This document shows positions 8,431 through 20,247 of a DNA stretch of 64,000 bases, piece by piece (the first letter of the stretch is position 1; each line of letters opens with the position of its first letter). The stretch is from Thalassobium sp. (GTDB taxonomy: Bacteria; Pseudomonadota; Gammaproteobacteria; Pseudomonadales; Oceanobacteraceae): contig NVUW01000003.1 of NCBI GenBank assembly GCA_002733205.1, positions 248,001 to 312,000 on the forward strand, read 5' to 3'. Both the position numbers and the translations under genes were made by a program. The notes beneath the pieces are model-generated. The model did no database searches. It was not told where the DNA came from and saw only the letters and a list, made by a program, of their open reading frames with translations.

Positions 8431-9077
8431 CCTAGAGCCTTTGAAAAATACTCTTGATATTTTCTCCCCAGATTTGGAGAAAATTCACCAATAGAAAATT
8501 CTTCGTCTTTAATTGATACAGACCGCCCCTCTAATTCAACACGGCCATTAGCGAACCAATCTACGATCTGAGCAAGAGAAACGACTTGCTGAAGAAACAC
8601 CCTATGTCTTAACTGAGTAACTTCCTCTTTTGGATTCCTTGGATATGCTGCTTGGATTAACGGCAAACCTGTATCCATACCTTCGTCAATGAAGTGAACT
8701 GTAGATCCAACAAATCGAGCACCTGAAGCAATTGTATCTCCAAAGCCGTCCTTTCCTGGGCATGCAGGTAAAATTGACGGATGAAAATTGACAATGCGAC
8801 CTTCATGTTCTTTTAAAAAGCGTCCTTTCAATAAACGCGTATAAAAAGATATGAATAGCACCTCTTTATCAGCCTCATATTCATTAGCAAGAAAATTCGA
8901 GAATTCCTCTCCAGATTTCGTTGCATAGACGAAACTATTTATTCCATTCCTCCTTGCAAATTCAATAGCGCCGCACTGCCTATCACTGACAACGCGAAAG
9001 TCATAATCAACATCAAAGCTTTCCATAAAATGCGAGAATACACTTCCATTTGTTGAACACAATACAACAAACTTCAT
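8421..9077 (-). CDS. PurN-fold formyltransferase, probably sugar N-formyltransferase
   Basis: This 218-residue protein has the N10-formyltetrahydrofolate-dependent formyltransferase fold. The catalytic Asn-His-Asp triad is complete: N97 and H99 in IVNFHPSILPA and D135 in FIDEGMDTGLPLIQ. Its neighbours include rmlA, rmlB and a VioA/FdtB-like aminotransferase but no other purine genes, so its substrate is more likely an amino sugar nucleotide, as with VioF (dTDP-Qui4N) or WbkC, than GAR. It is short for a sugar formyltransferase and lacks the C-terminal subdomain seen in several of them. Its ATG overlaps the WbqC stop by 4 bases. An alternative substrate is an amino-uronate. Confidence 0.78.
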   Translation of the reverse strand: MKFVVLCSTNGSVFSHFMESFDVDYDFRVVSDRQCGAIEFARRNGINSFVYATKSGEEFSNFLANEYEADKEVLFISFYTRLLKGRFLKEHEGRIVNFHPSILPACPGKDGFGDTIASGARFVGSTVHFIDEGMDTGLPLIQAAYPRNPKEEVTQLRHRVFLQQVVSLAQIVDWFANGRVELEGRSVSIKDEEFSIGEFSPNLGRKYQEYFSKALGCH

Positions 9078-9769
9078 GAGTCTAACTCATAAGAGTCTAA
9101 TAACTTTATAGTTTCAGACTTCCCATTCCACATTAATACGTCAATCATCGACAAATACGGCACAAACTCCCCACCGCCCTGAGAGTATTCACTGACCTCA
9201 GGGTTTATGAACTGTAAATTCACTCCCATTTTTTGAAAGTACTCCTTACTGTAAAGTTTTCTGCCGCCAGGACTGTTCACGTATTCTGAACATTCATTTA
9301 ACTTCGATATTTCTATCAACTTGTCCGCAGCGGACAAATTCCGGTCATATTCGAGATCACTTGAGCGTAACAACTTAGGCTTTTGCAAACCTAAATAATC
9401 AAATACAACCTCTATACTTGCCATACACAAAGACGTTATTTCCCTATCTTTCTGAGTTAGCACTTTTTCTATTAAGGGCATAACCTGAGAATAATAGTTA
9501 GACTTTTTATATGCCTGGTCAATTGTTAATAGAATCTTGCTAACGTCTTCGGAGAATTTAAGGCTATTAATAAGTACGTTTTGAGATGCTCCAAGGACCG
9601 GAACGGTAAATCGATGTGCGGAGCCATTAAGGAGAATAGTGTTGCGGTTAACATACCCACGCTTTATATAATTGACATCATCATAAAATATAAAAACATC
9701 AGAAGAATATACTAATTGATAATAACCAATATATGGAAATAAATAAGGCTGCATAACTGCGGCTTTCAT
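9074..9769 (-). CDS. WbqC-family protein
   Basis: This 231-residue protein begins [20 protein letters not shown] and continues DVFIFYDDVNYIKRGYVNRN, the hallmark of the WbqC-like family found in polysaccharide clusters. The biochemical role of the family is not established; members tend to sit beside DegT-type aminotransferases and acyl- or formyltransferases, as here. I chose ATG at 9769 because it overlaps the aminotransferase stop (ATGA) and places the family N-terminus correctly; a ten-residue upstream extension is open but overlaps coding sequence. The gene is coupled to its neighbours at both ends by 4-base overlaps, which argues that it works with the amino-sugar enzymes. Confidence 0.82.
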   Translation of the reverse strand: MKAAVMQPYLFPYIGYYQLVYSSDVFIFYDDVNYIKRGYVNRNTILLNGSAHRFTVPVLGASQNVLINSLKFSEDVSKILLTIDQAYKKSNYYSQVMPLIEKVLTQKDREITSLCMASIEVVFDYLGLQKPKLLRSSDLEYDRNLSAADKLIEISKLNECSEYVNSPGGRKLYSKEYFQKMGVNLQFINPEVSEYSQGGGEFVPYLSMIDVLMWNGKSETIKLLDSYELDS

Positions 9770-10863
9770 TTCAAAACAATCTCTTTTCCAATATGACAAA
9801 TTTTTTCAATATTTATAGGGGATAAACCAACATACAACGGCAAACAGACAATTCGCTGAGCAATATATTCAGACACCGGCATAACCTGTCCATTACCATA
9901 GTTAGTACTATTCAGCGACGGGTAAAAATAACGACGTGCGGAAATACCCTGCTGCTTCAGATTCTCTAATAACACTAAAACCTGAGCTTCGTTTTTCAGC
10001 ACCACTGGCATATAGGCATAGTTAGCGTTTGCGGCATAGTTTATTGCCTGCAGTTGCATTTCAGCAGGTAATTGCTGCTGATACTGTTCAACAATGGCTT
10101 TTCGTGCGGCCAGGTTAGCGACCATTTCATCCAATACACACAAACCCATTGCCGCTTGAAATTCATTCATTTTGGCATTAATACCCGGCCCGGCAATATC
10201 TTCGGGCCCGGCGAGACCAAAGTTAATCATCTGCTGAGCCCGCCGCAGGTCGGCCTTGTGTTTAAACACAATCGCTCCACCTTCAATGGTATGGAACAAT
10301 TTTGTCGCATGAAAACTCAGGGTGGCTGCATCGCCCCAGTTCAATAAGCTGCTACCTTTATAGTTCACTGCAAATGCATGAGACGCATCGTAGACCACTT
10401 TTAACTGGTGTTTTTGTGCTATCTCGTCAATAGCCTCAACCTCACACGCATTACCAAATACATGCACGGGTACAATCGCACGAGTGTGTTCTGTTATGGC
10501 AGCTTCAATGTTAGCCGGGTCCAAGCACCAACTATCGACAGAAATATCGGCAAAAACCGGTTTCAGACCTTCCCATTGCAATGAACTGGCTGTGGCCACA
10601 AAGGTAAATGGCGTTGTGATGGCTTCTGCTGTTTCGTTACAACCGGTATTGCTGATACCAAGTGCTTTATAAGCCACTTGCAACGCCAGCGTACCATTTG
10701 ATACCAGAAGTAGATTTTCTACTCCTAGGTATTCTTGCAGTCGCTGTGTCAGCTGTTGTAACAGTGGTCCATTATTGGTTAGCCAGCGATGTTCATAAAT
10801 ACTATCGATATAAGCATCGAGTTTTTCGCGGCTGGGGAGGTAGGGCTTAGTAACCGGTATCAT
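9766..10863 (-). CDS. DegT/DnrJ/EryC1/StrS-family sugar aminotransferase (VioA/FdtB-like)
   Basis: This 365-residue PLP enzyme is of the type that transaminates dTDP-4-keto-6-deoxy (or 3-keto) hexoses using glutamate. The PLP lysine is K188 in [14 protein letters not shown], the cofactor-phosphate loop SNGTLALQ is at 55-62, and the pyridine-ring Asp is in VVYDASHAF (D159). The [10 protein letters not shown] and SFHATK motifs are those of VioA-like and related enzymes. Directly upstream rmlA and rmlB supply dTDP-4-keto-6-deoxyglucose, and downstream a formyltransferase could cap the new amine. Whether the amino group is at C4 (gluco or galacto) or C3 cannot be decided. It overlaps rmlA by 4 bases. 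Confidence 0.85.
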
Positions 10864-11741
10864 TGATCGCCCGCCGCCAAACTCAGCAAATACTGACCAT
10901 AACTGTTTTTCTTCATCGGTTGCGCCAGCTCGACCAAGCGCTCGGCCGACAACCAGCCATGATTAAAGGCAATCTCTTCCAGACAAGCAACTTTATAACC
11001 TTGACGCTTCTCCAACGTTTCAACAAACTGAGCGGCTTCCAACAAACTCTCGTGAGTGCCAGTGTCCAGCCAGGCAAAACCACGACCCAATAACTCGACG
11101 TTTAAATCGCCCTTCTCTAAATAAGCATTATTGACACAGGTAATTTCCAGCTCACCGCGATGAGATGGCTGTACCTGCTTGGCAATATCAATCACACGAT
11201 TATCGTAAAAATATAGACCGGTTACCGCATATTGGGACTTAGGATGTTTAGGCTTTTCTTCGATAGAAACGACTTTCATGTCGGTATCGAATTCCACCAC
11301 ACCAAAGCGTTCAGGGTCTTTCACCTGATAACCAAATACGGTAGCACCACTACCTTGCTGTGCTTTCGCCACCGCTTGCTTCAGCTTAGGAGTGAAGCCC
11401 TGGCCGTAATAGATATTGTCACCCAGCACCAAACACACATCATCTGTACCAATAAACTCTTCGCCAATAATAAAGGCCTGGGCTAAGCCATCCGGGCTTG
11501 GTTGTATCGCGTAACTCAGATTAACACCAAATTGACTGCCGTCCTGCAGCAGACGCTGAAAGGCGGGTTGATCTTCCGCTGTGGTAATAATGAGAATGTC
11601 GCGGATACCGGCCAACATCAGCACTGACAACGGATAGTAAATCATGGGCTTGTCGTAGATCGGTAACAGTTGTTTGGATACGCCCATTGTAATAGGGTAC
11701 AAACGAGTGCCGGAGCCTCCTGCGAGAATGATACCTTTCAT
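10860..11741 (-). CDS. rmlA: Glucose-1-phosphate thymidylyltransferase
   Basis: This 293-residue protein has the normal RmlA length. The activating loop [11 protein letters not shown] (8-18), the [15 protein letters not shown] motif, and the metal-binding Asp in VLGDNIYYG are all present. The enzyme makes dTDP-glucose from dTTP and glucose-1-phosphate, the entry point to dTDP-6-deoxyhexoses, and is usually feedback-inhibited by dTDP-rhamnose. No rmlC or rmlD accompanies it in this window, so the pathway here seems to serve an amino sugar. It overlaps rmlB by one base and the aminotransferase gene by four. Confidence 0.95.
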
Positions 11742-12859
11742 TATTTATTTCCTAAACGTGCTAATTGGTAGTCGCCGTTTAATACACGTTGCCACCATTG
11801 TTCGTTGTTTAAATACCACTCTACGGTTTTACGTAAGCCAGTTTCAAAAGTTTCTCCTGGTTGCCAGCCCAGCTCATCGGCGATTTTACTGGCATCAATA
11901 GCGTAGCGGCGATCGTGCCCCGGACGATCTTTCACATTAGTGATAAGCGCCGAATAACCCCCTTCCGGCGCCTTACTTAACACTAAATCATCAAGAATGG
12001 TGCAGATAGTCTGAACTACTTCAATGTTACGTTTTTCGTTATGGCCACCAATATTGTAGGTTTCACCTACTGTTCCCTGTGTAATTACCTGATACAGCGC
12101 ACGCGCGTGGTCTTCAACATACAGCCAATCGCGAATCTGATCTCCCCTGCCGTAAATGGGTAGTGGTTTACCATGTAAGGCATTCAGAATAACGTGCGGA
12201 ATCAGTTTTTCTGGGAAGTGATAAGGCCCATAATTGTTGGAGCAGTTAGTAATGATAGTTGGCAAACCATAGGTATGCCGCCATGCTCGTACAAGGTGGT
12301 CGGAACTGGCTTTACTGGCACTGTAAGGCGAGCTTGGCGCATAAGCCGTTGTTTCAGTAAATAACGGTAAATCACTGTCATTGTCGCGGGCATTGCACGC
12401 TCCTACAGATTCGGTACTTGCCACATCATCCGGGTGCGGCAAATCGCCATATACTTCGTCGGTGCTGATGTGGTGAAAACGGAAAGCTGCTTTGCGTATT
12501 GCATCCAGTTGCTGCCAGTAGTTGCGGGATGCTTCCAATAACGTAAGAGTACCAACGACGTTGGTTTCAATAAACGCAGCCGGTCCATCTATCGAGCGAT
12601 CCACATGGCTTTCTGCGGCAAGGTGCATCACCGCATCGGGCTGATGCTGAGCAAATACCCGCTCCAGTTCAACTCGGTTGCAGATATCTACCTGTTCGAA
12701 AGTGTAACGTTCAGACGTGCTAACAGCAGATAGATTTTCCAGATTTCCGGCATAAGTCAGCTTATCGAGATTGATAACCTCATTCTGAGTATCGTTGATT
12801 ATATGCCGAACGACCGCTGATCCAATAAATCCGGCACCGCCGGTAACAAGAATCTTCAT
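11741..12859 (-). CDS. rmlB: dTDP-glucose 4,6-dehydratase with a REP-encoded insertion
   Basis: RmlB converts dTDP-glucose to dTDP-4-keto-6-deoxyglucose with NAD. The Rossmann motif TGGAGFIGS (6-14), the catalytic Thr-Asp-Glu in STDEVYGDL (T133, D134, E135) and the YxxxK in YSASK (Y179, K183) are present. At 372 residues it is longer than the usual 350-361. The extra length lies in one place, about residues 151-162 ([12 protein letters not shown]), between the DE pair and the YxxxK. These residues are translated from a REP palindrome (12384-12406) that keeps the frame open. Everything around the insert follows the family closely, so the enzyme is probably still active (inference). Confidence 0.95.
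12384..12406 (-). repeat. REP palindrome inside rmlB coding sequence
   Basis: On the minus strand this reads GTAGGAGCGTGCAATGCCCG then CGA, matching the intergenic REP at 16623-16645 at 21 of 23 bases. It lies fully inside rmlB and is translated as V-G-A-C-N-A-R followed by D-N-D-S from flanking bases. The stem keeps five of six pairs. Relative to enterobacterial RmlB the protein carries about 12 extra residues (36 bases, in frame) exactly here. Confidence 0.85.
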
Positions 12860-12861
12860 AC

Positions 12862-13884
12862 TTATCCTAAAAACGTTTTATACCAGGGCATCGCTTGCTC
12901 GATACCTTGGGAAATACGATATTGTGGCAGATACCCTAGACAACTCATTGCTTTACTAATATCAGCTTGGGAATGTCGCACGTCACCGGCGCGGAAGTCA
13001 TGATAGACAGGCTCGGCATCCACCTGAACACCATTACTGGCTAATGCAGTTTTAATTGCCGCATACAAATCGTTCAGTGTGGTACGATCACCGACCGCAA
13101 CGTTATATACCTGATCTTTAGCCTCATCCGACGCAGACGCAGCCAAAATATTCATTTGTATGGTGTTTTCGATGTAGCAAAAATCACGGCTGGTTTCACC
13201 ATCACCATTAATGAAAACATCATTCCCCTGAATCATGGCTGCAGTCCATTTGGGAATCACAGCGGCATACGCACCATTGGGGTCCTGTCGCTTACCAAAT
13301 ACATTGAAGTAACGTAAACCAATAGTTTTGAAACCGTAAGTGCGGGCATAAACACCGGCATACAGCTCGTTTACGTATTTAGTTACTGCATAGGGTGATA
13401 GCGGGTTGCCAATGTTTTCTTCGACTTTTGGTAATGCCGGGTGGTCACCGTAGGTGGAACTGCTGGCAGCATAAGTAAAGCTGGCCACGCCCTCTTCTTT
13501 CGCCGCCTGCAACATATTCAGGAAACCGGTAATATTTGCAGCATTTGATGTAATTGGGTCTGCAATCGAACGGGGAACCGAACCAAGGGCAGCCTGATGC
13601 AACACATAGTCTATGCCTTTAACGGCTTTTACACAGGTGGAATATTCCCGAATATCCCCCTCAATAAACCGGAACTTTTGCCACTGCTGAGGTGCGACTA
13701 AGCCTTGGACTTCATCCAGATTACGCTGATGTCCCGTAGCAAAGTTATCCAGACCAACTACCTTTTGATTGAGCTTTAATAGGGTTTCCAGCAGATTGGA
13801 ACCAATAAAACCAGCTACGCCGGTAATTAGCCAAACCTTTGGACTGTGCAGCAATTGCTGTTTAATTTCTTCGTAACGCGACAT
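12862..13884 (-). CDS. wbpP: UDP-N-acetylhexosamine C4-epimerase, WbpP/TviC type
   Basis: This 340-residue short-chain epimerase begins [12 protein letters not shown] and continues [16 protein letters not shown], as in WbpP, WbgU and TviC. The catalytic SSS and YxxxK are visible in AASSSTYGD and [12 protein letters not shown], and the C-terminal half keeps the family pattern [20 protein letters not shown]. The family interconverts UDP-GlcNAc/UDP-GalNAc and, better, UDP-GlcNAcA/UDP-GalNAcA. I use the ATG at 13884; an open extension to 13971 would overlap wbpO and does not match the family. It follows the wbpO-like dehydrogenase, and the two together would yield UDP-GalNAcA. The rmlB gene follows after two bases. 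Confidence 0.92.
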
Positions 13885-13933
13885 ATTTAAGACCCATGCC
13901 CAAAATATTAATGAGAAACACCGATACAGACTA

Positions 13934-15211
13934 CTACAAGCGCATATCCACATCTTTCTTCGCCAGTACATATTTTAAGTCATATAGTACATGGGATGTT
14001 TTACCCAGCTTGTGAATAGCCTCTGCGCCCATCTGCTTAAACTCATTATGCCCAACCGCAAGAATGATCGCGTCATAATAGCTTTCCTTATATTCTGCTG
14101 ACAACTTAAGACCATACTCATGCATCGCTTCACCTGCTGAGCACCATGGGTCTACAAGATCAACATCGATATTGTATTCTTGTAACTCATTAACAATATC
14201 AACCACTTTGGTATTACGCAGATCAGGACAATTTTCTTTGAAAGTCAGCCCCATAACCAAAACTTTAGCACCCTCTACCTGAATACGCTCTTTCACCATG
14301 CGTTTAACCAACTGAGACACAACATACTGGCCCATACGGTCATTCAGACGCCGACCGGCCAGAATCATTTCTGGATGATAACCAGAAGCCTGAGCCTTAT
14401 GAGTTAAGTAATACGGGTCGACACCTATACAGTGCCCTCCCACCAGTCCAGGTCGGAAGGGCAAAAAATTCCATTTGGTACCAGCCGCCTCCAAAACTTC
14501 CAGTGTATCGATACCTAATTTATTAAAGATAATGGATAATTCATTAATCAGTGCAATATTCACATCTCGCTGGGTATTTTCGATAACTTTAGCTGCCTCA
14601 GCGACGCGAATACTAGAGGCTTTATGAGTACCTGCCGTAATAATTGAGGCATACAGTTTGTCGACAAAATCTGCTACATCAGGAGTTGATCCACTGGTAA
14701 CCTTGAGGATATTAGTCACCCTATGTTCTTTATCCCCAGGATTAATTCGCTCAGGGCTGTAACCAGCAAAAAAGTCTTTATTGAATGTAAGTCCTGATAT
14801 CTGTTCGATCACAGGGATACAATCTTCTTCCGTAGCACCTGGATAGACGGTAGATTCATAAATAACCGTATCACCTTTTTGTACGACGCTGCCCAACATT
14901 TTACTGGCTTTTATCAGCGGTGTAAGATCAGGTTGCTTGTACTCATCAATAGGTGTAGGAACAGTAACGATATAGACATTACAGGATTTTAAATCAGTAA
15001 CTTCACTGGAAAAATTCAATGCACTTGCTGCAGCCAACTCATCAGTACTTACCTCAAGGGTTGAATCAATTCCAGATTGCAGATCCTTAATTCTTTCCTG
15101 ATTTATATCAAAGCCAAGTACATCAAATTTTTTACTGAACTCAACAGCCAATGGCAATCCAACGTATCCCAAGCCGATGATGGCGATTTTGGCATTTTCG
15201 TGTGACAGCAT
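13934..15211 (-). CDS. wbpO: UDP-N-acetylhexosamine 6-dehydrogenase, WbpO/TviB type
   Basis: This 425-residue UDP-sugar dehydrogenase has an N-terminal NAD domain ([18 protein letters not shown], 8-25), a central dimer domain, and the catalytic Cys in [20 protein letters not shown]. This [12 protein letters not shown] signature separates the WbpO/TviB/WecC group from UDP-glucose dehydrogenases. The enzyme oxidises UDP-GlcNAc or UDP-GalNAc to the uronic acid with two NAD. In the Vi antigen and P. aeruginosa O6 pathways it pairs with a TviC/WbpP epimerase, as it does here. A leader of 145 bases separates it from ugd, and a GCAAGGAA ribosome-binding site precedes its ATG. Confidence 0.92.
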
Positions 15212-15294
15212 TCAGGATTCCTTGCAGAGATTCTTATTTATGAATTTTTGGGCCCGCTAATACTGAGTACCTTATAGGGCTGCCCTTACAGATT

Positions 15295-15308
15295 ATCGCG
15301 ACAAAAAT
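15295..15308. repeat. 14-base repeat, copy in the wbpO leader
   Basis: ATCGCGACAAAAAT occurs here, 84 bases upstream of wbpO, and again at 16549-16562, 26 bases upstream of ugd. In this copy it is also half of a small hairpin (CGACA-AAAA-TGTCG). Both leaders also share a GGNTTCCTTGC block next to the start codon, which is the ribosome-binding site on the minus strand. The shared pieces may reflect leader duplication. No function is known. Confidence 0.5.
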
Positions 15309-15356
15309 GTCGTTACTACGAAATTCACGTTATCGTGTTGATGAGGCATGCCTGCT

Positions 15357-16523
15357 TTAATCGCTACCAAACAAATCACGGGTATATACTTTACCCGCCA
15401 CATCTTCCAGCTCGGCGGATGGCCGGTTGGCAACAATCACATCAGAAATTTTCTTAAACTCTTCAAGATTATTGATCACCCGCGAGTGGAAGAATTCTTC
15501 TTCTTCCAGTACAGGCTCATACACCACCACTTCGATGCCCTTGGCTTTAATACGCTTCATTACGCCCTGAATAGCTGAGGCGCGGAAGTTGTCTGAGCCG
15601 GTTTTCATTACCAGACGATAAATGCCAACCACTTTCGGATTACGGCGCAGAATAGAGTCGGCCACAAAGTCTTTACGGGTGGTATTGGAGTCTACAATGG
15701 CGCGGATAATGTTATTGGGTACATCATCAAAGTTGGCCAGCAGCTGTTTGGTATCTTTCGGTAGGCAGTAACCACCGTAACCAAAGGAAGGATTGTTGTA
15801 GTGGTTGCCAATACGCGGGTCGAGGCCAACACCTTGGATAATCTGCTTGGCATCCAGTCCGTGGGTTTCGGCATAGGTGTCGAGTTCGTTGAAGTAGGCC
15901 ACGCGCAGTGCCAGATAGGTATTGGAAAAAAGCTTTACTGCTTCTGCTTCGGTGCTGTCGGTAAATAAAACTTGAATATCTTGTTTTATCGCGCCTTGCT
16001 TCAGCAGGCCTGCAAAGGTCTCTGCGCGCTTGCTTTGCTCACCAACAATAATCCGTGATGGGTACAGGTTATCGTACAGCGCTTTGCCTTCGCGCAGAAA
16101 TTCCGGAGAAAAAATGAGGTTTTCACAGCCGAATTCTTCTTTAAGTCGCTTGGTATAACCCACAGGAATGGTAGATTTAATCACCATGACTGCTGCAGGG
16201 TTAATTGCCATTACATCTTTAATAACTGACTCAACACTTTTGGTATTGAAATAGTTCGTTTGTGGATCGTAGTCAGTTGGTGTTGCAATAATGACAAACT
16301 CTGCACCGGCGTAGGCTTCTTCTTTATTTAATGTGGCGCGGAAATTGAGTTGCTTGTTCTGCAGAAAATCTTCTATTTCGGTATCTACGATGGGAGATTG
16401 CTTGTTATTAAGCATCTCGACTTTTTCGGCAATAATATCAACCGCGACCACTTCGTTATGTTGTGCCAGTAACATGGCATTGGAAAGACCGACGTAACCG
16501 GTTCCGGCAATGGCGATTTTCAT
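15357..16523 (-). CDS. ugd: UDP-glucose 6-dehydrogenase
   Basis: This 388-residue protein is exactly the length of the enterobacterial Ugd. Present are the NAD site [18 protein letters not shown], the substrate loop [11 protein letters not shown], the [20 protein letters not shown] motif, and the catalytic Cys in [14 protein letters not shown] (about residue 253). It makes UDP-glucuronate from UDP-glucose, which the upstream galU provides. UDP-GlcA may enter the repeat unit directly or feed other uronic or pentose sugars; no decarboxylase or epimerase for it is seen in the window. The family match is strong throughout, without truncation. Confidence 0.95.
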
Positions 16524-16548
16524 ATTGGTTCCTTGCTAGCTCTCACTG

Positions 16549-16562
16549 ATCGCGACAAAAAT
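16549..16562. repeat. 14-base repeat, copy in the ugd leader
   Basis: This is the second copy of ATCGCGACAAAAAT, identical to 15295-15308. Here the bases after the repeat (ATTGTTTATT) differ from the other copy, so the small hairpin is not conserved and only the 14 bases are shared. Confidence 0.5.
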
Positions 16563-16622
16563 ATTGTTTATTCAGAGAGAGTGATGATTTCTGTTGATTG
16601 ATTGGTCCGCTGAAACGGACTT

Positions 16623-16645
16623 TCGCGGGCATGGCCCGCTCCTAC
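16623..16645 (-). repeat. REP palindrome (Pseudomonas type)
   Basis: On the minus strand this reads GTAGGAGCG, then GGCCAT, then GCCCGCGA: a perfect GCGGGC-CAT-GCCCGC stem-loop with the GTAGGAG head typical of Pseudomonas REP sequences. It lies between galU and ugd. Such elements are moved by RAYT-type transposases encoded elsewhere and often sit at gene ends, where they can protect or terminate mRNA. No RAYT gene is in the window. Confidence 0.85.
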
Positions 16646-16704
16646 GATTTATGAAAACTTGCGCAGACATCGGCCTTGCTGCTAAAAATCCGGCATTCAC
16701 GCCT

Positions 16705-16727
16705 TCGATGGCAACGGCCGCTCCTAC
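16705..16727 (-). repeat. REP-like element, diverged copy
   Basis: The same GTAGGAGCGGC head and orientation as the element at 16623-16645, with a 23-base core that differs at five positions and a weaker stem. The two copies are 82 bases apart as direct repeats. The 59 bases between them show no clear structure. Together they occupy the galU-ugd spacer, which has no convincing coding sequence. Confidence 0.6.
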
Positions 16728-16743
16728 AAATTTTTACGGCTAA

Positions 16744-17631
16744 TTAAAGGGTTTTAATCCACTCACTGAAGGCTTTGCCTTCTTTTTCATGGCGCATGCT
16801 GTATTCCACAAAGGCTTTCATATAGCCCAGCTTACCGCCGCAATCATGTGACTTACCCGTCATATAAAAAGCATTGACTGAATTTTTTTTCATTAAAGTA
16901 AAAATGGCATCGGTCAGCTGAATCTCATCCCCTGCACCTGGTGCAGTATGCGCAAGAATATCCCAGATATCGGCAGGTAATACATAACGACCTACGACCG
17001 CGAGATTGGAGGGTGCTTCTTTTACAGCTGGCTTTTCGACGATCGTTGAGATCGGAGCGCTTTCGCCAGGCTTAATATCCGCTCCTGATATATCAACAAT
17101 GCCGTATTTGTCGACGTCTTGCTGTGCAACGGCTTCGACCAGAATCTGGCTGGCACCTGTGGTTTCATACTCGCGAATCATTGCAGCAAGGTTTTCCTGC
17201 TCCAGATTGGCACTGGCATCATCAATCAATACATCTGGCAGCACCACGGCAAAAGGAGAGTCGCCAATCAATGGCTTGGCACAGAGCACCGCATGACCAA
17301 GACCTTTGGCCTGTCCCTGGCGAATATGCATGATGGTTACACCTTTTGGTGTGATAGAGCGAACTTCATCCAGTAACTGGCGTTTTACCCGTGCTTCCAG
17401 GGTCGATTCCAACTCAAAGGAGGTATCAAAGTGATTTTCGATCGCATTCTTCGATGAATGGGTTACCAGAATAATTTCAGTGATACCCGCAGCTGCGCAT
17501 TCATTAACCACGTACTGAATCAGTGGTTTATCGGCCAATGTCAGCATTTCTTTGGGAATGGCTTTGCTGGCTGGCAGCATACGGGTTCCAAGACCCGCTA
17601 CGGGAATTACTGCTTTAGTGACCTTTGTCAT
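16744..17631 (-). CDS. galU: UTP-glucose-1-phosphate uridylyltransferase
   Basis: This 295-residue protein is Gal[21 protein letters not shown] at the N-terminus carries the nucleotide-binding loop, followed by [18 protein letters not shown] and VLPDVLIDD with the metal Asp. It forms UDP-glucose, the precursor for Ugd and for glucose-containing glycans. It is the first gene of the polysaccharide operon after rfaH, 193 bases downstream of it, and an ops-like element lies in that gap. The ribosome-binding site is weak; a GGAGAGG is present but about 19 bases from the ATG. Confidence 0.95.
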
Positions 17632-17743
17632 AATTAAATCCGGGCCGGGCCCTCTCCTTAGGTTTTAATTCGTTTGCGTTCAACATTCATCATGGGTGTC
17701 ATCGGTTCCAATAAACCTGCAAAAACTTCTGCCCAACGTTCAG

Positions 17744-17757
17744 ACACGCTGCCGCCC
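17744..17757 (-). promoter_or_regulatory. Candidate ops element (RfaH recruitment site)
   Basis: On the minus strand, in the leader between rfaH and galU, the sequence GGGCGGCAGCGTGT resembles the enterobacterial ops consensus GGCGGTAGCGTG. Eleven of twelve bases match; the exception is C in place of the T that is flipped out and read by RfaH. The location is the expected one, about 113 bases before the first cluster gene, and rfaH is the adjacent gene. The rest of the JUMPstart sequence is not clearly conserved. The call rests on position and partial match. Confidence 0.45.
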
Positions 17758-17824
17758 GAAGGTTATTCGCGAATGTTCCCTGATATCGCATCGCTGCTCT
17801 TAATTTTCATTTTGGCCAATTTTT

Positions 17825-18319
17825 TCAGGCCAGTGCCAGCTCGCTCAATTCCACAAGCAATTCGCTCTGCTGGCCCAGCAGAGAAAGTAAGATTACCGCT
17901 CTCTCTGCACCATCATACTCTTGGAAGATGGCTTCATAGTGTTTAAAGGGTCCACTGCTTAATGCAACTCTTTGCCCTTTTGTATATAGGGCATCATTTT
18001 CATTGCAAGCCGTACGTCGCTGCAAGTCATCAACCAGTAAAGTGTTTACAACGGCAGGTTGCGATCCGAAATACAGCAAACCACGCGCGCCCAGCGTTGA
18101 GCGCACTTTGCTGAGAAGTGGATTTTCCGGGACTGATTTCAGAAAGAGATATCCAGGAAACAGCGCCTCCTGACGAAGCACCCGTTTGCCTTGCATAACA
18201 CATTCGCGTTGAAAAAGAGGTAAAAAGACATGCGCCCCCTGCTGCTCAAGATGCTCCAGAGCCCGTTGTTCTTGCCGGGGCCGCGTCAGAACAACGTACC
18301 ATTGAGATACCACATCCAT
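17825..18319 (-). CDS. rfaH: Transcription antiterminator RfaH (NusG paralogue)
   Basis: This 164-residue protein has an N-terminal NGN domain (SQWYVVLTRPRQEQRALEHL; then ALFPGYLFLKSVPE) and a short C-terminal domain with the remnants of a KOW fold (ALYTKGQRVALSSGPFKHYE). RfaH binds RNA polymerase at ops sites and suppresses Rho-dependent termination in long polysaccharide operons. It is shorter than NusG and lacks other NusG neighbours (secE, rplK). It lies 15 bases behind pyrF, so it is probably transcribed with pyrF, and directly ahead of the 17-kb polysaccharide cluster that it most likely controls. Confidence 0.88.
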   Translation of the reverse strand: MDVVSQWYVVLTRPRQEQRALEHLEQQGAHVFLPLFQRECVMQGKRVLRQEALFPGYLFLKSVPENPLLSKVRSTLGARGLLYFGSQPAVVNTLLVDDLQRRTACNENDALYTKGQRVALSSGPFKHYEAIFQEYDGAERAVILLSLLGQQSELLVELSELALA

Positions 18320-18334
18320 GTTATTCCGCAGGCC

Positions 18335-19072
18335 TCAGCTAAGGCTTGCCAGAATCTGCTCACAGGCAAGAGCAGGATCAGAGGCCTGAGTAATCGGCCG
18401 GCCAATTACCATATAATTAACTCCTGCATTCTGTGCCTGCAATGGCGTTAACACCCGGCGCTGATCACCTTGCTCAGTCCCTTCCGGGCGGATGCCTGGA
18501 GTGACCGTCAGAAATTTCGGACCACAGGCAGCGCGAATTAAAGCGACTTCCTGCGCAGAACAGACAACGCCATCAAGCCCGGATTGCTCCGTTAATGTTG
18601 CCAACCGTTCAACCTGTACCTGAGGATCAATATCCAAGCCGATATCGGCCAGGTCTGCACGCTCCATCGACGTCAGCACGGTGACACCGATCAGCAGTGG
18701 TCTATGAGATTTTTTCTCAATTTCATTGCGCGCCGCTTCCATCATACGCCGACCGCCAGAAGCATGGACATTCACCATCCATACACCTAATTCCGCGGCA
18801 GCACCGACGGCTTTAGCGCACGTATTGGGAATATCGTGGAATTTCAAATCCAGAAAAACATCAAAACCAAGATGATGCAGTGACTCTATGATCGCAGGGC
18901 CGGCAGCCGTAAAAAGTTCTTTACCAACTTTAACCCGACATTGTGCAGGGTTCAGCAGGCCAGCCATGGCCAAAGCCTGCTGCTGGTCCGGATAATCCAG
19001 CGCGACAACAACAGGCGAGCTGACAGCACAAGATGTATTTGCACGGTCAGAAGAGAGAGATTGCTTATTCAT
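18335..19072 (-). CDS. pyrF: Orotidine 5'-phosphate decarboxylase
   Basis: This 245-residue TIM-barrel enzyme makes UMP in the last step of de novo pyrimidine synthesis. Characteristic pieces are [14 protein letters not shown] at the N-terminus, the catalytic DxKxxD in [24 protein letters not shown], and the phosphate-binding TPGIRPEG and VIGRPITQA. The start overlaps lapB by 4 bases (ATGA). The ihfB-lapA-lapB-pyrF order is common in gammaproteobacteria. The N-terminal 20 residues before the first beta strand are slightly long but similar to E. coli PyrF. Confidence 0.96.
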
Positions 19073-20247
19073 AAATCGAGCTTCGCTTTTGGCAACTGCG
19101 GCACAAAAGAATTAATGGTCGACCAGTCCTTGCAGCTAGGACAGCGCCAGTGAAATTCTTTGGCCTTAAAACCACAATTTTTACAAACGAACTTAGGCTC
19201 GTTTTCAACAATGCGCCGCAGAATATCATACACAACCAGCAACTGCGACTTGTCGAGCTGCTGCTTATGACGCACCACTAATTCTACCAACGCAAAAAAA
19301 CCCAGGTTAGATGGTTGCGCTGCCAACTCGGACAACAGTGTCGTCATTGCCGGTACGATCCCCTGCATTTCGACTTCGCATTCGGCCTTAGCAACCAAAG
19401 CGGGAACGTACTGGCTGGTATGCCATTGCTTCGCCAAGTGGGCAACCAACCCGGAGCCATCATCGACATGTTGAAAAGAATCAACCATGCGCTCCAGCAC
19501 CATAACAATCGCCTGACTATCAACATCCACCGCTTTTAAATAACAGCGAATAGCTTCGCGGGGCTCTTTCTGGCCATACGCCATATCGCCCTGAACCACA
19601 AAGGCCCGTGCGCAGCGGCTATCAATTTTCAGGGCCTGGCGGCAGAACTGTTGCGTCTCCAGGTAATCACCACGGGCCGAAGCGCTCTCTGCTAACTCAC
19701 ACACAGCATGTGCAATGCGTTTATTGAGTGATGCACTGCCAGCAAGTTTCTTCTCCCGATACAAATCGAAAATACGCTGCCATTCCCCTTCCTCTTCATA
19801 CAATTCAACAAGGTAACGAGACGCCTGCTCCTGAATGCGGCCACGCGCACCCAGCAATTCAACAAATAAACGCTCAGCACGATCCAGCAGACCGGCATAG
19901 GAATAATCGATGGCTAATTCCAGCTCCAGCAGCATCTGCGTATTACGGGAGAGATCGGTACGGGCGAACAATGCCTGGTGCAGATGAATGGCACGATCAG
20001 CCTCTCCCTTTTCACGCAGAGAGCGGCCCAGCTTGAGAAACAGATCGATGGCATCATCGTCTAACTGAGGGACATTAAGAAGTCGTTCAAGCGAGGCATC
20101 ATTAGCTTCCGCCAACAAAAATTCAACACTGGGAATCCAGTCAGGAGAAGACTCTTTTTTAACCTGGCGGGCAAATCGATAGCCGAGGGTCCAGCCGATG
20201 GCAATCCCCAACAGCAGCAGCACATAAACCAGTGCAGAATCCATCAT
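19069..20247 (-). CDS. lapB: Lipopolysaccharide assembly protein LapB (YciM)
   Basis: This 392-residue protein has one N-terminal membrane helix ([19 protein letters not shown]), a run of tetratricopeptide repeats over about residues 65-350, and a C-terminal rubredoxin-like metal site with two CxxC pairs (CKNCG and CPSCKDW). LapB works with FtsH and YejM to control LpxC stability and so LPS amount. It is paired with lapA as in E. coli and overlaps pyrF. Either of two adjacent ATG codons may be used. This LPS regulator stands close to the surface-polysaccharide locus. Confidence 0.95.

What the first reader, a model, noticed from the sequence alone, without database searches (positions are those of the whole stretch)
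12384..12406. REP palindrome translated inside the active-site region of RmlB
A 23-base Pseudomonas-type REP (21/23 identical to the intergenic copy at 16623-16645) lies in the rmlB frame and codes for most of a 12-residue insertion (about residues 151-162) between the catalytic DE pair and the YxxxK. The insert equals 36 bases and keeps the frame open. In-frame coding REPs are rare outside cases like Rickettsia palindromic elements. It would be a case of a selfish palindrome tolerated in a conserved enzyme, perhaps because this loop is naturally variable.
Basis: partly seen in the sequence, partly recalled or inferred. Interest (0 to 1): 0.75.

Follow-up and report, generated by a model that had tools for sequence, protein, structure and literature searches.

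The report
Selfish DNA palindromes translated inside RmlB
A tiny mobile DNA palindrome that normally sits between genes is translated inside a floppy loop of the sugar enzyme RmlB, is shared by a sister species, and the same loop has kept several unrelated repeats in other bacteria, which makes it a recurring landing spot for such DNA inside a protein.

Summary
Bases 12384-12406 are an in-frame copy (21/23) of a GTAG-class REP with 12 copies in this genome (7 exact; control 0). It encodes most of a 12-residue insertion in RmlB relative to Salmonella RmlB.

(1) The insertion is not unique: a second species of the genus has it at the same locus, with a REP 22/23 identical to the family consensus, so it probably predates their split. 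(2) In-frame REPs are already described (PMC3733652). (3) What looks new is recurrence. In 252 distinct RmlB genes at hand (not a random sample), all 16 with a loop of 32 residues or more carry a repeat there, and none of the other 236 does by the same test. The repeats are GTAG REPs, a GTCGGAT..ATCCGAC palindrome, a triplex-type motif and an AT-rich repeat. The classes were defined after looking. A 47-gene tree needs 5 changes for six carriers; a quick tree of all 252 needs 11 for sixteen.

The loop is predicted with low confidence and is weakly constrained. Best reading: a permissive loop that repeatedly retains translated repeats. Benefit to the enzyme is unproven.

The parts
11741..12859 (-). 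rmlB, dTDP-glucose 4,6-dehydratase, 372 aa, long-loop (DLPHP) subtype
12384..12406 (-). In-frame GTAG-class REP; on the coding strand GTAGGAGCGTGCAATGCCCGCGA, codons 152-159 (VGACNARD, last codon partly)
12377..12412 (-). Approximate 36-base (12-residue, [12 protein letters not shown]) insertion relative to RmlB of the same subtype without insert; exact borders ambiguous
12455..12460 (-). Catalytic D134-E135 codons (catalytic role from established knowledge of the family)
12311..12325 (-). Y179-S-A-S-K183 codons, the YxxxK motif
16623..16645 (-). Intergenic copy of the same REP, exact to the genome consensus

Best explanation
A GTAG-class REP, presumably moved by a REP-associated tyrosine transposase (RAYT), was inserted in frame into rmlB before two species of this genus separated. 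It survived because it fell in the length-variable, probably disordered loop between the TDE and YxxxK motifs of the long-loop RmlB subtype, where 12 extra residues are tolerated. It is now decaying: each species has its own changes. The same loop has separately kept other REPs and unrelated repeats in other gammaproteobacteria, in all of the GTAG, ATCCGAC and triplex-type cases read in one orientation and frame per element. RmlB loop 1 is thus a recurrent landing place for translated palindromic elements, filtered by tolerance at the protein level. SHOWN: REP identity, frame, sharing between two species at one locus, recurrence, weak constraint, low model confidence. INFERRED: the RAYT as agent, neutrality, enzyme activity, vertical inheritance, order of events.
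For: REP family in the genome and in 7 of 9 genomes of the genus, 8-51 copies each, with compensatory stem variants. Same insertion in G002 at 22/23, with collinear flanks. Insert pN 0.20, pS 0.24 against 31.2/823 and 95.8/245 in the rest of the gene. pLDDT mean 48 at residues 151-160 in a model of mean 88.9. 16 of 16 loops of 32 or more residues carry repeats, 0 of 236 shorter ones by the same test. 5 changes on a 47-gene tree, 11 on 252 genes. A different REP subfamily in L043, with 34 near copies in its own genome counting rmlB and 0 in G000 and G002.
Against: The repeat classes were defined after seeing the loops, and the 252 genes are a biased sample (close hits; one genus searched specially). 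The REP borders do not match the insertion. No RAYT flanked by this REP subfamily was found; G002 has no PF01797 match. G508's REP occurs only in rmlB, which suggests import with the gene. No synonymous change in the 8 REP codons where I would expect about 2.4, which is not simple neutral decay. By stem length alone the four GTAG-REP loops do not stand out from codon shuffles.
Confidence: 0.82

Rival explanations
1. Import: the insertion spread by horizontal transfer or recombination of rmlB alleles, so part of the recurrence is shared history and not separate insertion.
For: This RmlB type is patchy: at E <= 1e-130 only 2 of 9 genus genomes have it. G508's REP is the only copy in a complete genome. 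Two different Marinobacter RmlB lineages (L215, L228) carry the identical 27-base palindrome. pS differs between gene halves, 0.59 and 0.25.
Against: The element types differ in sequence between lineages; carriers are scattered on trees built without the loops; the G002 locus is collinear; L043's REP subfamily is abundant in its own genome.
Confidence: 0.12
2. Domestication: the hairpin or the peptide has a function (RNA structure, or tuning of the active-site loop) and is kept by selection.
For: One orientation and frame in all GTAG, ATCCGAC and triplex-type carriers although 4-6 of 6 frames are open; no synonymous change in the REP codons.
Against: High pN in the insert; a stem pair is broken in G000 and the GTAG is lost in G002; most RmlB lack any insert (236 of 252). 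Few independent events.
Confidence: 0.08
3. Chance: ordinary codons of a variable loop happen to resemble a REP.
For: The loop is hypervariable and the stem in G000 is imperfect.
Against: Best of 1000 codon shuffles is 5 mismatches, observed 2 and 1; G002 has 22/23.
Confidence: 0.005
4. A recent insertion unique to this genome.
For: Few genomes of the genus have this RmlB type.
Against: G002 has the same insertion in the same frame and locus.
Confidence: 0.01

Closest known systems
Intragenic GTAG and CGTC REPs, Di Nocera et al. 2013 (PMC3733652; section 15 read, other passages seen)
   Same: In-frame REPs in genes of known function (uvrA, recB, DnaE2 and others), including different REPs at about one site of recB in two Xanthomonas species; tolerance in flexible loops is suggested there.
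   Different: RmlB, rml and rfb are not named in the main text (its supplementary gene list could not be read). Here one loop holds several unrelated element types across lineages, sometimes two side by side.
Rickettsia palindromic elements (RPE; passages of the review PMC2229807)
   Same: Palindromic element translated in frame inside conserved enzymes.
   Different: RPEs are 105-146 bases and lie in many genes of one genome; this REP is 23 bases and rmlB is the only such gene found among the G000 copies that were tested.
REP/RAYT systems (passages of PMC8266576 and PMC2817692)
   Same: GTAG head plus palindrome, repeated in the genome; RAYT genes present.
   Different: Single REP inside a coding region; no RAYT flanked by this subfamily was found.
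Intrastrand triplex motifs, TMECO (PMC4666352; passages seen)
   Same: 5 of the 7 Marinobacter loops of this kind match the consensus with spacings relaxed and, in one, a mismatch in the last block.
   Different: Described there as always intergenic in E. coli MG1655; here translated (PSPLAGEGxGERG and variants).

Membership tests
GTAG-class REP | GTAG at one end of a short palindrome | tested here: met
   GTAGGAGCGTGCAATGCCCGCGA; one stem pair broken here, stem perfect in G002 (where GTAG reads ATAG)
GTAG-class REP | Many dispersed copies in the genome | tested here: met
   12 copies in G000, control 0; modest compared with REP-rich genomes
GTAG-class REP | Stem kept by compensatory changes across the family | tested here: met
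   Double-changed stems such as GTGGGCCATGCCCAC and GCGGCCCATGGCCGC in the genus list, read by eye
GTAG-class REP | Cognate RAYT flanked by the same REP | tested here: inconclusive
   Two RAYTs in G000; one flanked by another GTAG subfamily, neither by this one within 1.5 kb; genome 86.9% complete
REPIN (two inverted REPs) | Second REP in inverted orientation close by | tested here: not met
   Only one copy at this place
RPE-like intragenic element | In-frame insertion into a conserved enzyme with the frame kept open | tested here: met
RPE-like intragenic element | Many genes of one genome carry it | tested here: not met
   Of 12 G000 copies, ORFs of 150 aa or more cover the rmlB copy and one REP pair (L002/L003); there one ORF has the REPs ahead of its Pfam domains and the other has no Pfam match. 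Shorter ORFs were not tested
dTDP-glucose 4,6-dehydratase (RmlB) | Family profile, catalytic motifs and fold | tested here: met
   NF007490 over cut-off; TDE and YxxxK conserved; TM 0.90 to 1g1a
dTDP-glucose 4,6-dehydratase (RmlB) | Catalytic activity with the insert | not testable with these tools
   needs an enzyme assay

The most novel reading that the evidence does not exclude
RmlB loop 1 is a natural landing pad inside a coding sequence: unrelated palindromic DNA elements colonise it again and again, stack up, and are kept in one orientation and frame because the resulting short peptides are useful variable loops beside the active site. Selfish palindromes would then serve as raw material for enzyme loop evolution.
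Probability: 0.15. Interest if true: 0.75.

Novelty: new variant of a known kind. Interest (0 to 1): 0.58.

Why it matters
Translated REPs are known as scattered cases. Here one conserved enzyme offers a repeated natural experiment: the same loop with no element, with one of several unrelated elements, or with two, in genomes close enough to compare. That makes it testable which palindromes coding DNA tolerates, whether orientation and frame are set at insertion or by selection, and whether selfish DNA supplies new protein loops.

Tried and rejected
Rejected: chance resemblance; uniqueness to this genome; a known Rfam RNA nearby (none at gathering threshold in window 9000-19500). The simple terminator scan does not list the rmlB REP.

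Led nowhere or stayed open: exact insertion borders (the loops of insert-free relatives cannot be aligned base by base); the cognate RAYT; the palindrome in the second variable loop of L043 (no further copy in 100 kb sampled from its genome); the AT-rich repeat of L052 (only related repeats at two places in 300 kb of its genome; the exact 19-mer tried gave 0); the triplex-type element as a genomic repeat in Marinobacter (one place, seen on both strands, in 200 kb of G788; 0 in 200 kb of G808 and 0 in 400 kb of G432; the reversed pattern is itself similar, so that control says little). L045 (+6 residues) might hold a decayed REP; not claimed. I made no search of the E. coli, plasmid or phage collections. 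A paper joining rmlB or rfbB with a coding REP was not seen in the listings, which show 25 of 1,311, 2 of 2 and 15 of 72 papers; most of these were not opened.

Dropped or limited rows: L175 and L181 (contig edge, wrong register); duplicate genes; genes whose loop my sequence pattern did not recognise are not counted; 30 of the 34 REP places in G425 were available as loci. One ORF (L148, 167 aa) was not tested against Pfam.

Full report
WHAT IS THERE. Bases 12384-12406 lie in rmlB (11741-12859, minus strand, 372 aa). On the coding strand they read GTAGGAGCGTGCAATGCCCGCGA. The genome consensus is GTAGGAGCGGGCCATGCCCGCGA: 7 exact copies and 12 within three mismatches in G000, none for the pattern read backwards. 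Of the nine genomes held for the genus, seven carry it (8 to 51 copies within three mismatches) and two carry none; all backward controls are zero. Variants with both sides of the stem changed (such as GTGGGCCATGCCCAC and GCGGCCCATGGCCGC) show that the palindrome is maintained in the family. Shuffling the codons of this rmlB 1000 times never came closer than 5 mismatches; observed 2.

THE INSERTION IS PROBABLY OLD. The sister genome G002 (RmlB 91% identical) has the same 37-residue loop with ATAGGAGCGGGCCATGCCCGCGA, 22 of 23, in the same frame. Window 10950-12858 and 15357 to about 21540 match G002 in the same order and orientation; the DNA between them differs. The nearest RmlB without the insert, L015 (81% identical), has a 24-residue loop. 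The two copies carry different changes: G000 broke one stem pair and altered the hairpin loop, G002 lost the G of GTAG. In codons 149-164 pN is 0.20 and pS 0.24; in the rest of the gene 31.2 nonsynonymous changes fall on 823 sites and 95.8 synonymous changes on 245. The inserted residues are therefore weakly constrained. Against plain neutrality, the 8 REP codons show no synonymous change, where 6.2 synonymous sites at that rate would give about 2.4 (my arithmetic).

WHERE IN THE PROTEIN. The insert lies between T133-D134-E135 and Y179-S-A-S-K183, both conserved. The AlphaFold2 model (mean pLDDT 88.9) matches Salmonella RmlB 1g1a (TM 0.90 by query length) and is least sure at residues 151-160 (mean 48; 154-157 under 50) apart from the C-terminus. 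The model of the L043 protein also drops in loop 1 (156-160 under 50) and in a second variable loop (block 301-310, mean 56). Solvent exposure was not measured.

OTHER COPIES OF THE REPEATS. In 80 loci around repeat copies (12 of G000, 30 of G425, 26 of the genus, 12 others), 23 had an ORF of 150 aa or more over the repeat position. Five of these are RmlB, and two were out of register. Sixteen ORFs from the rest were tested against Pfam. Where domains were found (GARS, amidase/AMIN, AAA and Wzz proteins) the repeat lay before or after them; the other twelve had no Pfam match. So no further repeat was found inside a Pfam domain; ORFs under 150 aa were not tested.

RECURRENCE. In 252 distinct RmlB genes, loop 1 has 16-18 residues in 180, 23-25 in 52 (mostly the DLPHP subtype), 26-31 in 4 and 32 or more in 16. 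Applying one repeat test to all 252 loops gave a hit in 16 of 16 of the last class and in 0 of 236 of the others. The carriers are: this genome and G002 (GTAG REP); L043, a gammaproteobacterial MAG (GTAGGAGCGACTTCAGCCGCGA; 34 places in its own genome counting rmlB, 0 in G000 and G002); L202 (GTAGGAGCTGGCCACGCCTGCGA); six genes with GTCGGATAGAG..ATCCGAC (L215, L228, L379, L380, L405, and L381 decayed, 5 mismatches); seven with CCCTCTCCC..GGGAGAGGG (L379, L380, L382, L383, L388, L389, L394); and L052, Oceanisphaera pacifica, with AT-rich repeats. L379 and L380 hold two different elements side by side. G425, the genome of L043, also holds two exact copies of this window's REP consensus, so that subfamily is not confined to the genus. 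Five of the seven triplex-type loops match the published E. coli triplex consensus with relaxed spacing. Outside loop 1, L227 carries GTAGGAGCGACTTCAGTCGTGA in the second variable loop, one of 14 near copies in 400 kb of its genome, reversed control 0. Limits: the classes were drawn up after seeing the loops, the set is biased towards close hits and Marinobacter was searched on purpose, and a whole-gene scan of 239 genes had one hit in its reversed control. By stem length alone the four GTAG-REP loops do not stand out from codon shuffles; the triplex-type loops and the undecayed ATCCGAC loops do.

INDEPENDENCE. On an IQ-TREE of 47 RmlB with loop 1 removed, six carriers (L013, L014, L043, L202, L215, L228) need 5 changes (bootstrap range 5-5; at least 4 forced by well-supported branches). 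FastTree on all 252 needs 11 changes for the 16 carriers; by element type 3 for the GTAG REPs, 4 and 5 for the other two. Such counts do not separate gain from loss. G508 is a caution: its REP occurs only in rmlB within a complete genome, which fits import with the gene. In G500 the same palindrome stands in rmlB and again near the 3' end of the adjacent gene, which has Wzz and GNVR domains.

FRAME. All GTAG, ATCCGAC and triplex-type elements in loop 1 are forward and, per element type, in one frame at the 5' block, although 4 to 6 of the 6 frames of each element are open. The second block of the triplex-type element shifts frame in L380 alone. With few independent events this is suggestive only; it points to a filter at the protein level, or to oriented insertion.

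MECHANISM. Most likely a RAYT-type single-strand process, or copying from another REP, placed the palindrome, and insertions that keep the frame in this loop survive because the loop is not part of the fold core. RAYT recognition involves the GTAG tetranucleotide and the hairpin (passages of PMC8266576). G000 has two RAYT genes over the NF047646 cut-off, one flanked by another GTAG subfamily. None flanked by this subfamily was found, and G002 has no PF01797 match. The agent is therefore inferred.

WHAT IS KNOWN. In-frame GTAG and CGTC REPs, including different REPs at about one site of recB in two Xanthomonas species, are in PMC3733652 (section 15 read), which also suggests that insertions may be neutral in flexible linkers or loops (passage). 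RPEs in Rickettsia genes are reviewed in PMC2229807 (passages). So the kind is known. The RmlB loop as a repeated landing site for several element types is, as far as my searches show, a new variant.

Noticed in passing
16705-16727: A second, degenerate REP-like stretch (18 of 23 to the consensus) in the same orientation, about 59 bases after the intergenic REP.
   Followed up: partly
L168:1315-1821 and 1889-2131 (own genome): A RAYT gene with, beside it, a short tandem repeat that would read MPNAECR four times.
   Followed up: no
L170:1294-2020 (own genome): A second RAYT gene flanked on both sides by GTAGGAGTGGCTTTCAGCCACGA, a different GTAG REP subfamily.
   Followed up: partly
L043:5902 onwards: The second variable loop of the same RmlB holds an 8-base-stem palindrome, ATCCTGCG..CGCAGGAT, in frame; no further copy in the 100 kb sampled.
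   Followed up: partly
L332:1454-2470 (G500): The gene next to rmlB (Wzz and GNVR domains) carries the same GTCGGAT..ATCCGAC palindrome near its 3' end.
   Followed up: partly
L382, 9-44 bases after the end of the rmlB open frame (G860): A further triplex-type motif lies directly downstream of rmlB, besides the one in its loop.
   Followed up: no
L179:1196-2116 (G003): A 307-aa open frame without Pfam match is covered by at least two REP copies in an exopolysaccharide-like neighbourhood; possibly spurious.
   Followed up: no
L073, near 5832 (Sulfurovum MAG): AATTCAAAATTCAACA-type repeats lie in the second variable loop of RmlB, as in L052.
   Followed up: no
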